DNA of 21,929 nt. Origin: a virus. The number at the start of each line of letters is the position of its first letter. Position 1 is the first letter of the stretch. Position numbers and translations under genes: made by a program. The DNA lies in the IMG/VR virus record IMGVR_UViG_3300042934_000884, positions 1-21,929 of that record; one strand, 5' to 3'. Under the pieces are notes generated by a model. That model was not told the DNA's origin, did not search any database, and was given only the letters and a program-made list of their open reading frames with translations. Positions 14,402 through 19,836 of the stretch are shown here, one piece after another.

Positions 14402-15019
14402 TTATTTAGATTTGTATTGGTATTTCAATTGTAACTTACGCTTATCCAAGTCAAAGCTCTCCAGCTGTTTCAAGTTACTCTCCAGCAGCTCAAAACTCCT
14501 TGCAACAACGCTCGTTGTATCATAAAACGGGGTATCCACCACGCTAACGTCATAAAGTTTTTGAATATTGGTAACAGTTCTAATGGTTTCAAGGTCTCCA
14601 TATTGCCAAGTATCGCCTTTATCTGCTACACGAAATGCAAATGACATCTTATCAATCAGTTTTTCTTTAACTGACTTATAAACATCTTTGTTACTTTGCG
14701 TATCAATCAATTCAGCACGTATTTTAAGGCCGACATCATCTTTAATAAGCTGCAGACTGTTGTTTCTTGTCCTGGCGAGAATGAGCCAACTATCATTATG
14801 GTTATATCTCATCGGAACATCCTTCATATCGGTAGTATCAAGGGCGCCCCTCTTAATAACCTCAGTAAACTTATAATTTCCATATTCATGAGTAGCCGGC
14901 TGATCATATGTTATTGCATATCCTTCAAGGACCATCTTACCGTCTTCTTCTCCGACAGCTCTCATTTCAACAAGTCTTATTTCATTATCAAATTTTAATG
15001 CTTTATTTTCCTTACCCAT
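14402..15019 (-). CDS. Prohead protease, HK97 family (peptidase S78)
   Basis: The 205-aa protein has the S78 layout: LEGYAITYDQPATH, then FTEVIKRGALD, the catalytic-His block PMRYNHNDS (H74), VGLKIRAELIDTQ, and the catalytic-Ser block DKMSFAFRV (S126), followed by LYDVSVVDTPFYDTT. It cleaves the delta domain from the capsid protein inside the prohead and then itself. A strong GAAGGAGG site precedes the ATG, which overlaps the end of the portal gene by 8 bases. Processing of the capsid linker next door is the expected partner reaction. Confidence 0.94.
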   Translation of the reverse strand: MGKENKALKFDNEIRLVEMRAVGEEDGKMVLEGYAITYDQPATHEYGNYKFTEVIKRGALDTTDMKDVPMRYNHNDSWLILARTRNNSLQLIKDDVGLKIRAELIDTQSNKDVYKSVKEKLIDKMSFAFRVADKGDTWQYGDLETIRTVTNIQKLYDVSVVDTPFYDTTSVVARSFELLESNLKQLESFDLDKRKLQLKYQYKSK

Positions 15020-16268: not shown

Positions 16269-17999
16269 CTACCTTATTAATTCCGTGTATTCTTTTCTGT
16301 ATCTATCATAAGTTGCATAAGCAATAATCAAAGCAACTGCTCCATCAATACGCCTGTTCGCCTGGTCTTGAGCTTTAATCGGCATAATCTGACCATATTT
16401 ATTAACTACACATGCTGTATTTTTCAAGCACCATATGTCTATTGGGTTCTTATTATAATTGACTAATTTGCTTTTTAAATCTGCTTCTAGCATTTTCATC
16501 CCCTGGCTCATGTTGATGTAGTCCTGTCTTATTTTTTCCATCTCAAAGCCATAGTCTTCCATTTCGGCAACAAAAGATTTTGCATTCCAACGGTCATATC
16601 CATCTTTAAAAATTCGTATGTTATACTTTTTGTAAAGCATTACATACCACATAACAACATCCGAATAATCGACCTCATTTCCTCGGCATATTGTTATTAA
16701 CCCTTGTTTTGCCCACTCTAAATAATTTTTTTTATCGATATGTGAGCCTTCCTCAACCTTCGTTTCCGGTATGAAATAGTGTTGCAAAATGTATTTTGTC
16801 CTGTCGCCCGGCCTCATGATCAGAACCTTTGCAGCAGTCAGGTCAGTTGTTTCTGATAGGTCAGTTCCCCCAATTCCAATAGAACCCCTTAAATCTTCAA
16901 TATCATAGGTAAGGTTGTTTATTATGTCCTTTTCCATAAGCCAAGCCTGTGCATTGTTTTGTTTTATATTGAAGTCCTTCGATAATGTAAATACCCTTTC
17001 TGCTTTGTCAGCCTGTGCTTTATTCAGTTGATCCCTAATGTATCCATATTTTTTTATGACTCCGAGCGAAGGATTTGCTTTTATCCAGCTTGATTCATCT
17101 TCAAATATTTCAATCTCACTATCCATTGTGTACAGCCATGCAAGTAGAGTATAATCTACTCTTTCACCATTAAGAACTTCCCTTGCATACTTAAGTTCCT
17201 TGTCTAAATAACCGTCATCGGTAAAGCCCTCTGTTGTTATATTTATAAAAATTGGCTCATCCTTTGTTGACTGAGACTGCTCAATTGATTTAGCTATGAC
17301 GTTATCTTTCATTTCATGGCTTTCATCTAGTATAGCAAGTTCTATGTTTCGACCTTCTTTATTTCTAGTCCTGTCGGAAAGCTTTTTGATAGTTGATTTG
17401 TTTTTAAGGTTAAATATTCCCTTTAGATTTTTATGTGTTCTTCTTGACTTAGGATCAAACATTTCTCGCATGTTTGTTATTTCGCTAAAAATTAAATCCG
17501 CCTGAGCATCATCATTCGATGAGCATATTATGTCGCTGCCAGCATTGCCAACCATAAATTCACTTAAACAAATAGCTGCACAAAGTGTAGATTTGCCATT
17601 TTTTCTGGCAACCAATAAAATAAGCTTCTTAAATCTTCTAAGTCCAGTATCTATCCACTTAAAAGAATAAAAAGCCTCAATTACTGCTTTTTCCCACAGT
17701 TCTAATATAAACGGCATGCCATAAAATGGGCTTTTGGTATGCCTGCAAAATTTTTCAATAAATGTTATTCTTATTTCTGCATCAAATATTTGATAAAACC
17801 ACTTGTCAGATTCTAAATCTTTAATAAGATTTTTCAGACACTGCTTTAATTCATGGCCAATGATAATCTCGCCGGACTTAGTTTTTTGATAATATTCCAA
17901 TAAATATGAGTATTGACCATTAATAATGTTATTCTCATAGTCAATCAAATTTTTAAATTCAATATCCTGGGCTAAGTCTCTTAATCTATCAATTATCAT
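16269..17999 (-). CDS. terL: Terminase large subunit (Terminase_1 type)
   Basis: The 576-aa packaging motor has a Walker A-like motif ARKNGKST at residues 131-138 and a Walker B LAILDESHE at 221-229. A coupling segment FINITTEGF lies at about 251-259, and the nuclease domain opens at GIGGTDLSETTDLTA with D380 as the probable first metal ligand. This matches the P27-partnered Terminase_1 family. The enzyme uses ATP to pump DNA into the prohead through the portal and cuts the concatemer. It overlaps the P27-type small subunit by 11 bases, so the two are translationally coupled. Together with an HNH protein nearby, this type is usually found in cos-site packagers. Confidence 0.95.
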   Translation of the reverse strand: MIIDRLRDLAQDIEFKNLIDYENNIINGQYSYLLEYYQKTKSGEIIIGHELKQCLKNLIKDLESDKWFYQIFDAEIRITFIEKFCRHTKSPFYGMPFILELWEKAVIEAFYSFKWIDTGLRRFKKLILLVARKNGKSTLCAAICLSEFMVGNAGSDIICSSNDDAQADLIFSEITNMREMFDPKSRRTHKNLKGIFNLKNKSTIKKLSDRTRNKEGRNIELAILDESHEMKDNVIAKSIEQSQSTKDEPIFINITTEGFTDDGYLDKELKYAREVLNGERVDYTLLAWLYTMDSEIEIFEDESSWIKANPSLGVIKKYGYIRDQLNKAQADKAERVFTLSKDFNIKQNNAQAWLMEKDIINNLTYDIEDLRGSIGIGGTDLSETTDLTAAKVLIMRPGDRTKYILQHYFIPETKVEEGSHIDKKNYLEWAKQGLITICRGNEVDYSDVVMWYVMLYKKYNIRIFKDGYDRWNAKSFVAEMEDYGFEMEKIRQDYINMSQGMKMLEADLKSKLVNYNKNPIDIWCLKNTACVVNKYGQIMPIKAQDQANRRIDGAVALIIAYATYDRYRKEYTELIR

Positions 18000-18381
18000 C
18001 TTGCTTCATACCTTTCATCCACTCGTCAAAAGGATCTTCGCCCTCAATAGTATTTTTCATCAGTATGCTGTTTAGGACTTTTACATTTAAGGCATAAATA
18101 TTGACTGTTCTTCTATACTCATTTGCTATCGGCAATGTCTTTTGCATTGCCTTATTACTTGGATTTATCTTTATCATGCCTGTTTCATCTAATATTTTTT
18201 TCATATCAAAGAGTTCACCTCTAAGATATGCTGTTTCCTGAATTAACCCTTCGACAAGCTTACTCTTAGACTCCTCAATATCCTTGAATATTTCAGTCAA
18301 TTTATTCAACTCTTGGCTGTAAACTTGCATTTTATCAAGTTCTTTCAAAAGCTTCACCCCGATTTCATTTTTTTGATTCAT
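17989..18381 (-). CDS. Terminase small subunit, P27 family
   Basis: The 130-aa protein has the P27 pattern: a basic N-terminal helix, IQETAYLRGELFDMKKILDETG, then NPSNKAMQKTLPIANEYRRTVNIYALNVKVLNSIL. It recognises the packaging site and delivers DNA to TerL, with which it overlaps by 11 bases. Start: the ATG at 18381 has no clear ribosome site because a GC-rich block lies before it; a TTG at 18348, preceded by GGGGTG, is a real alternative that would remove 11 residues. A second, unrelated small-terminase-like gene lies two genes upstream. Confidence 0.87.
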   Translation of the reverse strand: MNQKNEIGVKLLKELDKMQVYSQELNKLTEIFKDIEESKSKLVEGLIQETAYLRGELFDMKKILDETGMIKINPSNKAMQKTLPIANEYRRTVNIYALNVKVLNSILMKNTIEGEDPFDEWMKGMKQDDN

Positions 18382-18392
18382 GTGAGAATAAT

Positions 18393-18443
18393 GGGCCCCC
18401 TACATCGCTCCCCAGGGGGTCGCTAAATAAAAAACATGGGGGT
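18393..18443. other. GC-rich island, candidate cos site
   Basis: In otherwise AT-rich sequence this gap between the HNH gene and P27 terS holds GGGCCCCC (18393-18400), an inverted repeat CCCCCT / AGGGGG (18396-18401 with 18414-18419) and a second GGGGGT (18438-18443) 23 bases after the first. Location and composition fit a cohesive-end (cos) site for an HNH-assisted, P27-type terminase. The cut point cannot be read from sequence. Alternatives are a structured leader of terS or a terminator without a T-run. Confidence 0.4.
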
Positions 18444-18449
18444 ATTATT

Positions 18450-19205
18450 TTATTTTGTAAAGTTATCAAACCAATTATTAATGTACTCTGTCCACTCATC
18501 TTTGTGCTCTTGCCTATAGTCATTGCAATAGTTTAATCTATACAGGCAGTCTTCCTTGTCTGCTTCAATATAAACAAGCTCAGCTCCTAAGTCCGAAGCT
18601 AACTTATCTCTTGCATACTTGTCAGCATAACCGCCTATTATCCAGGCGCTGTTCCAATTGCCATACCTTGTTTTGATATTGTCCAGCAATGTGTTTCTTA
18701 ATCCAAAGATAATATACTTTAAGTTATCCGGTTTATCATACAGTGGTTGCAGACTAACAGCTTGATACAACCTATCCATATCAACAACTATGTCGCCTGG
18801 TTGCATGTTCTCTTTTACGTACGTAGTCTTACCGCACATTGGTGGACCATAAACTATATACACACCTTTATTCTTAACATGTCTCTTAGTAGCTGGACCA
18901 CTAAACCTATCATGCTCTTTATTGTGACAATGTAAACATGCTATTTTAACATTGTCAGGGTTAAGCGAAATGGTGACATCATTGACATTATCATCAGTCA
19001 ATTCAATAGGAGTATGATGTATCTGTATATGTCTTGATACAACTATGTTCTTCTTACAATATTCACATACAATATGCTTGGATATACTTCCATCCGGATT
19101 GACAACAGTAACCATTCTATCAAAAATGATTTGCTGCCTGAACAGCTGCCACTCAAGACCTCTAAAAAATTGTTTAATAGTTGAATAATTCATATTACCA
19201 AGCAT
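18450..19205 (-). CDS. HNH endonuclease fused to a P-loop kinase-like domain
   Basis: The 251-aa protein joins two domains. Residues about 40-105 are a zinc-finger HNH nuclease: C47-x2-C50, H63-H64 in IQIHHTPIEL, NPDNVK (82-87), C90-x2-C93-H94 and H98. Residues about 113-250 are a P-loop NTPase of the AAA_33 or polynucleotide/zeta kinase type: YIVYGPPMCGKTTYV with Walker A 120-128, and Walker B IVVDMD (139-144), then LVYIEADKEDCLYRL. Phage HNH proteins beside terminase genes stimulate cos cutting (HK97 gp74). A fused kinase suggests handling of DNA ends, but this is inference. Start: the ATG at 19205 overlaps the previous gene by 11 bases; the ATG at 19193 is also possible. Neither has a strong ribosome site. 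Confidence 0.87.
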   Translation of the reverse strand: MLGNMNYSTIKQFFRGLEWQLFRQQIIFDRMVTVVNPDGSISKHIVCEYCKKNIVVSRHIQIHHTPIELTDDNVNDVTISLNPDNVKIACLHCHNKEHDRFSGPATKRHVKNKGVYIVYGPPMCGKTTYVKENMQPGDIVVDMDRLYQAVSLQPLYDKPDNLKYIIFGLRNTLLDNIKTRYGNWNSAWIIGGYADKYARDKLASDLGAELVYIEADKEDCLYRLNYCNDYRQEHKDEWTEYINNWFDNFTK

Positions 19206-19836
19206 CCTGTTCTATCTTTTGTTTCAATCGCTTTACTCTTAGCTTTTGTTCATCTGTAGCAATGTCCCAGTTAGCATGTAGCATTTCATCATATTGTTTA
19301 ATCATTTTAGTAAGAGTGCTCATACCCTTTGACAGAGTATTCATTAAATTAGCTTCTTTGTCCCAGGCGAACTGTATTTCATATTCAATGCCTTGTTGTT
19401 TACCCTTTGTGAGTTTTTTAATGTCTTTTGTATGATCATCTCTGTTCTTAACATGCATTAAATCTTGCATATGTATAATTCTTGCTTCTTGCAGACAAAT
19501 GCTTCTCCACAATCTCTCTAAAGGATCTGCACTATCTAACTCTTCCATTATGTTCTTGACAGCAAATGGAATCCTCTCAGTATACTTACCAAAGGTAAAG
19601 CTATTATAATTACCTTTTGGAGCTCCACCACCTGCATTACCAATAGCATTTTGATTACCATATGGAGCACCTTTTTTATTTAGCCTTTTTGCCCATTTGT
19701 CTTGAACTCTCCATGAATTTATGTTATTAATTTTTTCATTTAGTAGCTCTGCAATCTCCTTGGAAGATATTTTCCCTTCATGCTCTTTATATATTTCAAA
19801 GGCCTTATCTCTATTAGGACTCCTTTGTCTTGACAT
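19195..19836 (-). CDS. Small-terminase-like protein of the XtmA/PBSX type
   Basis: The 213-aa protein opens MSRQRSPNRDKAFEIYKEHEGKI, then SSKEIAELLNEKINNINSWRVQDKWAK, a helix-turn-helix of the PBSX small-terminase type. The Gly/Asn-rich linker with GAPYGNQNAIGNAGGGAPKGNYNS that follows is a hallmark of this family. The C-terminal half is helical (ERLWRSICLQEARIIHMQDL and a coiled end). The frame extends to a TTG at 19851, but that TTG lies within the GGAG ribosome site, so the ATG at 19836 is chosen. Its usual partner is a PBSX-type TerL, whereas the TerL here pairs with P27, so it may bind DNA for another purpose or give packaging extra site recognition. It is first in the packaging operon. 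Confidence 0.85.
   Translation of the reverse strand: MSRQRSPNRDKAFEIYKEHEGKISSKEIAELLNEKINNINSWRVQDKWAKRLNKKGAPYGNQNAIGNAGGGAPKGNYNSFTFGKYTERIPFAVKNIMEELDSADPLERLWRSICLQEARIIHMQDLMHVKNRDDHTKDIKKLTKGKQQGIEYEIQFAWDKEANLMNTLSKGMSTLTKMIKQYDEMLHANWDIATDEQKLRVKRLKQKIEQDAW

What the first reader, a model, noticed from the sequence alone, without database searches (positions are those of the whole stretch)
18450..19205. HNH nuclease fused to a P-loop kinase-like domain in the packaging locus
Seen: a complete zinc-type HNH motif and a complete Walker A/Walker B domain of polynucleotide/zeta-kinase type in one chain, placed between two small-terminase-like genes. Known: stand-alone HNH proteins help cos cleavage. 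Inference: the second domain could process DNA ends (for example 5'-phosphate) created at cos, or sense nucleotides to time the cut. I recall similar fusions in phages, but their biochemistry is, as far as I know, undescribed.
Basis: partly seen in the sequence, partly recalled or inferred. Interest (0 to 1): 0.66.

Follow-up and report, generated by a model that had tools for sequence, protein, structure and literature searches.

The report
Kinase-fused DNA-end cutter for phage packaging
This phage gene makes one protein that joins a DNA-cutting domain to a kinase-like domain, and it sits beside the site where the virus cuts its DNA to length for packaging; the fusion is already catalogued in many phages, but why a cutting enzyme carries a kinase is unsolved and can now be tested.

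Summary
The 251-aa ORF (18450-19205, minus strand) is real and intact. It has an HNH nuclease domain (PF01844, above cut-off) and a P-loop kinase fold: the AlphaFold model of the kinase domain has pLDDT 96, and its best PDB match is T4 polynucleotide kinase. It is one of at least 217 homologues found in Bacillota phages and prophages. The family is catalogued as PHROG_4581 ('terminase small subunit'); RefSeq notes a J-1 member as 'HNH endonuclease/P-loop NTPase'.

The gene lies directly upstream of cos. In relatives, 21 of 59 distinct contig ends fall within 100 nt after its stop codon (p=5e-19), with TerL at the other end of complete contigs. In cos phages with recorded ends it is usually the last gene.

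The kinase role is unproven. HNH histidines are kept in 96/96 homologues, but the Walker A Ser/Thr is lost in 14/96 (at least 7 times), and PNK's DxxR motif is absent. The same kinase domain is fused to HNH in some phages and to the prohead protease in others (S. aureus phages, BFK20, phi674), which keep a separate HNH. It therefore looks like a packaging module whose activity need not be 5' phosphorylation.

The parts
18450..19205 (-). HNH-kinase fusion gene, 251 aa (P0001)
   Evidence: AlphaFold model pLDDT 93.3
18906..19067 (-). HNH nuclease domain, residues 47-100 (C47, C50, H64, C90, C93, H94, H98)
   Evidence: PF01844 above cut-off; H64, H94 and H98 kept in 96/96 homologues; best PDB profile hit GVE2 HNHE 5h0m
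18453..18872 (-). P-loop kinase-fold domain, residues 112-251
   Evidence: Model pLDDT 96.1; Foldseek best hit T4 PNK 1ly1, E 3.3e-6
18825..18848 (-). Walker A motif GPPMCGKT (residues 120-127)
   Evidence: G120, G125, K126 96/96; S/T127 82/96
18774..18782 (-). DxD motif (D142, D144) after strand 2, where P-loop kinases have the general-base Asp
   Evidence: D142 90/96, D144 94/96; kept across Actinobacteria, Staphylococcus and Lactobacillus phages
18393..18443 (-). Core of the predicted cos: C tract 18439-18443, GGGGAGCGATG 18403-18413, G run 18393-18402
   Evidence: Alignment with relatives in which contigs physically end in GGGGAC; GC 0.59 against 0.35 for the window
18349..18392 (-). Conserved right flank of cos: CTCACATGAATC + AAAAAAATGAAATC, likely TerS/terminase recognition element, and the RBS of the next gene
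   Evidence: Conserved as CACACAAACC + A-rich tract in relatives; position like the A-tract TerS site of HK97 cos (PMC11331095)
19195..19836 (-). Terminase small subunit (PF10668 / NF040601), upstream, overlaps the fusion gene by 11 nt
   Evidence: the ORF opens at TTG 19851; Met codon at 19836
17989..18348 (-). phrog_1066 gene (P0002) directly after cos; probable start TTG 18348 instead of ATG 18381
   Evidence: the relatives' conserved cos DNA runs through 18349-18386; homologue downstream in 121/217 loci
16269..17999 (-). Terminase large subunit (TerL)
   Evidence: PF03354 + PF20441; downstream in 146/155 loci with room
14402..15019 (-). Prohead-protease position (205 aa), without a kinase domain in this phage
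   Evidence: ORF list; contrast with kinase-protease fusions in other phages

Best explanation
The gene encodes the cos-cutting cofactor of this phage's terminase, with an extra ATP-using module. Shown: the protein is an HNH nuclease domain joined to a PNK-type P-loop kinase fold. In its family the gene is the last one before the genome's right end, and the next DNA is a conserved cos (C tract, GGGGAC core, G run, CACACA/A-tract element). Inferred: as for HK97 gp74, the HNH domain cuts or nicks cos together with TerL to give a 3' overhang of about 10-14 nt. Inferred: the kinase domain is a packaging module that works in the same complex, binding ATP and probably engaging the cut end or the terminase-procapsid junction, so that cutting is coupled to an assembled, ATP-charged packaging machine. 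In most lineages its active site looks intact, but phosphotransfer seems dispensable in some.
For: Position: 21 of 59 distinct contig ends lie within 100 nt after the stop codon, p=4.7e-19. Ten near-complete contigs with the gene at one end have TerL at the other, and their ends read ...GGGGAC with a gap of about 11-13 nt relative to spanning relatives, as expected for a trimmed 3' overhang. In named phages the gene stops 47-143 nt from the recorded right end (J-1, A2, LF1, BH1, ThulaThula, Tortellini, McGonagall, Moosehead, Mbo4, CL31, phi16); Mbo4 carries an annotated 3' overhang and BH1 a PhageTerm cos (PMC6950654). TerL lies downstream in 146/155 loci. HNH: catalytic His kept in 96/96. Kinase fold; Ka/Ks about 0.03-0.1 against the three closest relatives. 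Module logic: the same domain occurs as HNH-K, K-HNH, K-K-HNH, K-RapZc-HNH, adjacent HNH and K genes, or on the prohead protease while a K-less HNH sits at cos (BFK20, phi674; S. aureus 308 also has a separate HNH). Dispensable catalysis: Walker A S/T lost in 14/96, at least 7 independent changes, with D142 lost more often in the same proteins (Fisher p=0.004).
Against: No biochemistry. 75/96 members keep K126, S/T127, D144 and R223 together, which argues for a catalytic role in most lineages. Many cos phages with packaging HNH proteins (HK97) have no such domain, so it is not generally needed. No physical contact with TerL or the procapsid is shown, and the exact cut positions in this window are inferred from relatives.
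Confidence: 0.6

Rival explanations
1. End-repair kinase: the kinase domain phosphorylates 5'-OH ends at cos, or ends damaged by host nucleases, so that the cohesive ends can be ligated after injection.
For: Best structural neighbours are nucleic-acid kinases: T4 PNK, C. thermocellum Pnkp, PSTK. P-loop, D144 and lid Arg R223 are intact in the window, and all four catalytic positions are kept in 75/96. Actinobacteriophage homologues are already called polynucleotide kinase.
Against: PNK's DxxR Arg is absent (position 147 is W/Y/F in 90/96, R in 2) and there is no strand-3 Asp. Walker A S/T was lost at least 7 times in the HNH-fused family. HNH and TerL cuts should already leave 5'-P. TM-scores to gluconate and adenylate kinases are similar, so the substrate is not identified.
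Confidence: 0.27
2. The kinase domain acts on something else (a protein such as scaffold or terminase, a nucleotide, or a host defence target) and is merely carried by packaging genes.
For: P-loop kinases of this fold have many substrates; profile hits include adenylate kinase and gluconate kinase. The fusion to the prohead protease places it inside the procapsid in some phages.
Against: The only contexts seen in named phages are packaging/head genes, nearly always at cos with HNH.
Confidence: 0.2
3. Homing-type HNH selfish element that happens to lie beside the terminase genes.
For: Free-standing HNH homing endonucleases are common in phages (general knowledge).
Against: Conserved syntenic position at cos across Bacillota and Actinobacteria phages, catalytic His in 96/96, purifying selection, terminus at the gene's 3' end.
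Confidence: 0.03
4. The GC island is a transcription terminator and contigs end there because G/C runs stop assembly, not because of cos.
For: G and C runs are present in the island.
Against: No terminator-like site in the island. Complete linear contigs have TerL at the other end, and phages with recorded or experimentally determined 3' overhangs end in the same place.
Confidence: 0.03

Closest known systems
HNH-kinase proteins of Lactobacillus phages J-1, PL-1, Lrm1, BH1, A2 (PHROG_4581 'terminase small subunit'; RefSeq note in J-1 'HNH endonuclease/P-loop NTPase domain')
   Same: Same domain order and position; last gene before a cos with a GGAACGG core; profile match E=5e-49
   Different: Only about 25% identity; J-1 keeps a longer N-terminal extension; the A2 record is split in two by a 1-nt deletion
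HK97 gp74 / S. aureus cos-phage HNH packaging proteins (Kala 2014; Quiles-Puchalt 2014)
   Same: HNH domain encoded beside the terminase genes; gp74 stimulates TerL cutting at cos (PMC9410871)
   Different: Those have no kinase domain; stimulation is not shown for this family
T4 polynucleotide kinase (kinase domain)
   Same: Fold, P-loop, Asp after strand 2, lid Arg; best Foldseek hit
   Different: No DxxR motif, no strand-3 Asp, no 3'-phosphatase domain; about 15% identity; activity unknown
Kinase-prohead protease fusions (PHROG_9644; S. aureus phage 308, Corynebacterium phages BFK20, phi673, phi674)
   Same: Homologous kinase domain in a cos phage
   Different: The kinase is on the N-terminus of the S78 protease, and HNH is a separate gene beside cos
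Adjacent HNH and 'polynucleotide kinase' genes of Mycobacterium phages (BigNuz, Phayonce, Tortellini; M. abscessus prophages)
   Same: Same two domains, overlapping genes beside cos or the terminase genes
   Different: Two polypeptides instead of one

Membership tests
Packaging HNH cofactors (HK97 gp74 type) | HNH motif with metal-binding/catalytic His | tested here: met
   PF01844 above cut-off; H64/H94/H98 invariant in 96 homologues
Packaging HNH cofactors (HK97 gp74 type) | Gene next to terminase genes and cos in a cos phage | tested here: met
   Contig-end test, TerL synteny and recorded genome ends
Packaging HNH cofactors (HK97 gp74 type) | Stimulates TerL cleavage at cos | not testable with these tools
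   Needs purified TerL, TerS and the fusion protein
PHROG_4581 HNH-kinase family | Profile match over both domains | tested here: met
   E=5.2e-49 over residues 41-250
5' polynucleotide kinase (T4 PNK / Pnkp) | P-loop GxxxxGK[ST] and Asp general base in a PNK fold | tested here: met
   Residues 120-127 and D144; Foldseek 1ly1 E=3.3e-6
5' polynucleotide kinase (T4 PNK / Pnkp) | DxxR acceptor-binding Arg (T4 R38) | tested here: not met
   Position D+3 (residue 147) is Tyr; R in only 2/96
5' polynucleotide kinase (T4 PNK / Pnkp) | Asp at the end of strand 3 (T4 D85 region) | tested here: not met
   Gly at 191/192 in 83/96 and 89/96; correspondence by secondary structure only
5' polynucleotide kinase (T4 PNK / Pnkp) | ATP-dependent 5' phosphorylation | not testable with these tools
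   Needs an enzyme assay
Classical terminase small subunit | Recognised TerS domain (PF05119, PF10668, PF23931) | tested here: not met
   None found in P0001; the upstream gene P0003 carries PF10668
Classical terminase small subunit | Specific binding to cos DNA | not testable with these tools
   BH1 authors report that the A2 homologue was classed as a small terminase (PMC6950654); the primary paper is not held
Zeta toxin | Zeta_toxin profile match and antitoxin partner | tested here: not met
   No Pfam zeta toxin hit at E<=1; one weak PDB profile hit (E=0.11); neighbours are packaging genes

The most novel reading that the evidence does not exclude
The kinase-fold domain is an undescribed portable module of the phage packaging machine. 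It must be present in the terminase-procapsid assembly, and evolution delivers it on whichever partner is convenient: the cos-cutting HNH nuclease, a neighbouring gene, or the prohead protease. It couples genome-end formation to ATP or to the capsid, and has repeatedly turned into a pseudo-kinase without being lost.
Probability: 0.35. Interest if true: 0.78.

Novelty: new member of a known kind. Interest (0 to 1): 0.5.

Why it matters
Tailed phages must cut their DNA at exactly the right moment and place. A widespread group carries a kinase-like domain on the cutting enzyme, and others carry the same domain on the capsid protease. That swap points to an unrecognised step linking DNA-end formation with the capsid. 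The conserved cos defined here gives a concrete DNA substrate, and named laboratory phages give the genetics, so the question can be tested directly.

Tried and rejected
Sequence search of PDB with the single protein gave only chance hits. NCBIfam gave no family for the fusion. Terminase_4 relationship of P0002: not supported with a three-sequence target profile, so left open. One exact pattern for the right-hand cos element was too strict (2 loci); the element is described from the alignment instead. Terminator reading of the island rejected. Homing-element reading rejected on synteny and conservation. Zeta toxin considered and rejected. Papers: no description of HNH-kinase biochemistry in the searched library; Kala 2014 and Quiles-Puchalt 2014 are not held and are cited through later papers or memory.

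Full report
OBSERVATION. The window is a 21,929-bp viral contig. The ORF at 18450-19205 (-) is intact, 251 aa. Residues 47-100 are an HNH domain (PF01844, 26.1 bits, cut-off 21.4). Residues 112-251 show Walker A GPPMCGKT, but Pfam sees the domain only weakly (AAA_33 E=0.024). The whole protein matches PHROG_4581 'terminase small subunit' at 5e-49.

STRUCTURE. With 96 homologues (alignment A4) AlphaFold gives mean pLDDT 93.3. The kinase domain alone, with 49 sequences, gives 96.1 and pTM 0.88. Foldseek against the PDB ranks T4 polynucleotide kinase first in both cases (1ly1, E 3.1e-5 and 3.3e-6, TM 0.62), followed by C. thermocellum Pnkp, PSTK, gluconate kinase and adenylate kinase. The kinase fold is therefore established, but TM-scores of 0.5-0.67 to several kinases do not identify a substrate. 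The strand order is that of a P-loop kinase: strand 114-119, P-loop, strand 139-142 followed by DxD, strand 186-191, strand 209-212.

FAMILY. Two scans of viral contigs gave 137 loci and a genome scan 80 more, mostly Bacillota (Clostridium, Desulfosporosinus, Paenibacillus, Bacillus, Ruminococcus and others). The result lists were capped at 80, so totals are lower bounds. In 96 non-redundant members the HNH histidines H64, H94 and H98 are invariant, while seven members lack one or more zinc Cys. P-loop K126 is invariant, D144 is kept in 94/96 and R223 in 89/96, but Walker A S/T127 in only 82/96. On a maximum-likelihood tree the loss needs 11 changes, at least 7 on well-supported branches. D142 is lost more often in the same proteins (4/14 against 2/82, Fisher p=0.004). 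All four kinase positions are intact in 75/96, including the window protein. Ka/Ks against the three closest relatives is 0.03-0.10 for the kinase part and 0.09-0.22 for the HNH part, so the kinase domain is under strong constraint. It may nevertheless have become a pseudo-kinase in several lineages.

GENOME TERMINUS. Among the viral contigs, 22 right ends (21 of 59 after removing duplicates) fall within 100 nt after the stop codon, where about 1.5 are expected (p=4.7e-19). The control on the 5' side shows 3 of 39, all contigs truncated in or at the gene start. Many of these are near-complete contigs of 32-42 kb. Of 12 examined, ten carry full-length TerL 0.4-2.1 kb from the opposite end, so the contigs are linear genomes opened at cos. 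Their right ends read ...GGGGAC or similar. Their left ends start about 11-13 nt further on when aligned with relatives that span the site, as expected when a 3' overhang is trimmed during library preparation. Spanning relatives share C5-8 tract, 22-28 nt, GGRAC[C/T]G core, G run, CACACAAACC, A-rich tract. In the window these are 18443-18439 (C tract), 18413-18403 (GGGGAGCGATG), 18402-18393 (G run) and 18386-18361. HK97 TerS binds 15-29 bp downstream of its cut and reads an adjacent A-tract (PMC11331095), a similar layout. The conserved DNA runs through the annotated start of the next gene, whose likely start is TTG 18348.

NAMED PHAGES. The same protein is the last gene before the recorded right end in Lactobacillus J-1 (111 nt), A2 (98), LF1 (47), BH1 (111), Mycobacterium ThulaThula (121) and Tortellini (109), Gordonia McGonagall (143) and Moosehead (125), Rhodococcus Mbo4 (58, with an annotated 3' overhang), Corynebacterium CL31 (62) and phi16 (82). 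Gordonia Eyre (224 nt, one small gene between) and JustASigh (1390 nt, with a separate HNH at the end) are looser cases. A2's two ORFs are one gene in J-1 and LJ, split by a missing base in the A2 record. BH1's authors report its cos by PhageTerm and state that the A2 homologue was classed as a small terminase (PMC6950654).

A PORTABLE KINASE DOMAIN. Searches with the kinase domain alone find it in two contexts only: with an HNH domain near cos or the terminase genes, or on the N-terminus of the prohead protease. With HNH the architectures are HNH-K (Bacillota, Gordonia McGonagall), K-HNH (Staphylococcus IME1354, Mbo4, Moosehead, Eyre, M. abscessus prophiGD43A-5), K-K-HNH (CL31), K-RapZ C-terminal domain-HNH (phi16, PF22740 8.9e-20) and two overlapping genes (Mycobacterium phages). 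The protease fusions are in S. aureus phage 308, whose HNH is a separate gene before TerS, and in Corynebacterium BFK20, phi673 and phi674. BFK20 has a kinase-free HNH 92 nt from its annotated 13-nt 3' cos, and phi674 has an unannotated one in the same place; phi673/phi674 ends were determined experimentally as 13-nt 3' overhangs (PMC6132909). In these phages the domain is on one partner or the other, never on both. The window's own protease-position ORF is 205 aa, with no room for it.

MECHANISM. Shown: domain make-up, position at cos, conservation. Established for HK97: gp74 promotes cos cleavage by TerL (PMC9410871), and one strand each may be cut by TerL and HNH to give the 10-nt 3' overhang (PMC11331095). 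Inferred: the HNH domain here does the same at 18393-18413. For the kinase domain, the specific idea of 5'-end phosphorylation is possible but weakened by the missing DxxR Arg, the repeated loss of Walker A S/T, and the fact that these nucleases already leave 5'-phosphates. The swap between HNH and protease suggests a function needed in the terminase-procapsid assembly, such as ATP-dependent engagement of the cut end or coupling of cutting to the capsid. I put about 0.85 on the HNH-cos role, 0.27 on 5'-kinase activity at ends, and 0.6 on the overall statement.

NOVELTY. The protein is a new member of an already catalogued fusion family. The conserved cos beside it, the repeated Walker A loss against invariant HNH histidines, and the alternative placement of the kinase domain on HNH or protease were not found described in the papers searched. 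That library omits most subscription journals, so absence there is weak evidence.

Noticed in passing
L006 4726-5528 (phage A2 record NC_004112 42511-43313) against L009 and L019: A2 ORF60/ORF61, annotated as two small terminase subunits, are one HNH-kinase gene in J-1 and LJ; the A2 record lacks one base (GAAGA-CGCAC).
   Followed up: yes
L014 3998-5017; L251 3772-4824; L252 3505-4590: The same kinase domain is fused to the N-terminus of the prohead protease in S. aureus phage 308 and Corynebacterium phages BFK20 and phi674; their HNH is a separate gene (beside cos in BFK20 and phi674).
   Followed up: partly
L256 about 2322-2616 (phi674 record about 42821-43115): Unannotated HNH ORF about 76 nt from the cos end of phi674, homologous to BFK20 gp55.
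   Followed up: partly
L017 2998-4092 (Corynebacterium phage phi16): Kinase domain + RapZ C-terminal domain (PF22740) + HNH in one protein at the genome end.
   Followed up: no
L013 2021-3292 (Corynebacterium phage CL31): Two tandem copies of the kinase domain (the first with a degenerate DxD) plus HNH in one protein.
   Followed up: no
Alignment A4, residue 127 (14 of 96 loci): Walker A Ser/Thr replaced by K, H, Q, A, N, V or R in at least 7 independent lineages that keep the rest of the domain.
   Followed up: partly
window 18348-18381: The ATG start of the phrog_1066 ORF lies inside conserved cos DNA; the real start is probably TTG 18348 behind GGGGTGA.
   Followed up: partly
RefSeq against GenBank: Phayonce gp77, BigNuz gp82, ThulaThula gp80: RefSeq names the kinase-only proteins 'terminase small subunit' while GenBank names them 'polynucleotide kinase'; neither name has experimental support that I could find.
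   Followed up: no
L201 (contig titled Nanoarchaeota MAG): Match identity and E-value equal to L202 (Firmicutes HGW MAG); probably a mis-binned phage contig rather than an archaeal virus.
   Followed up: no
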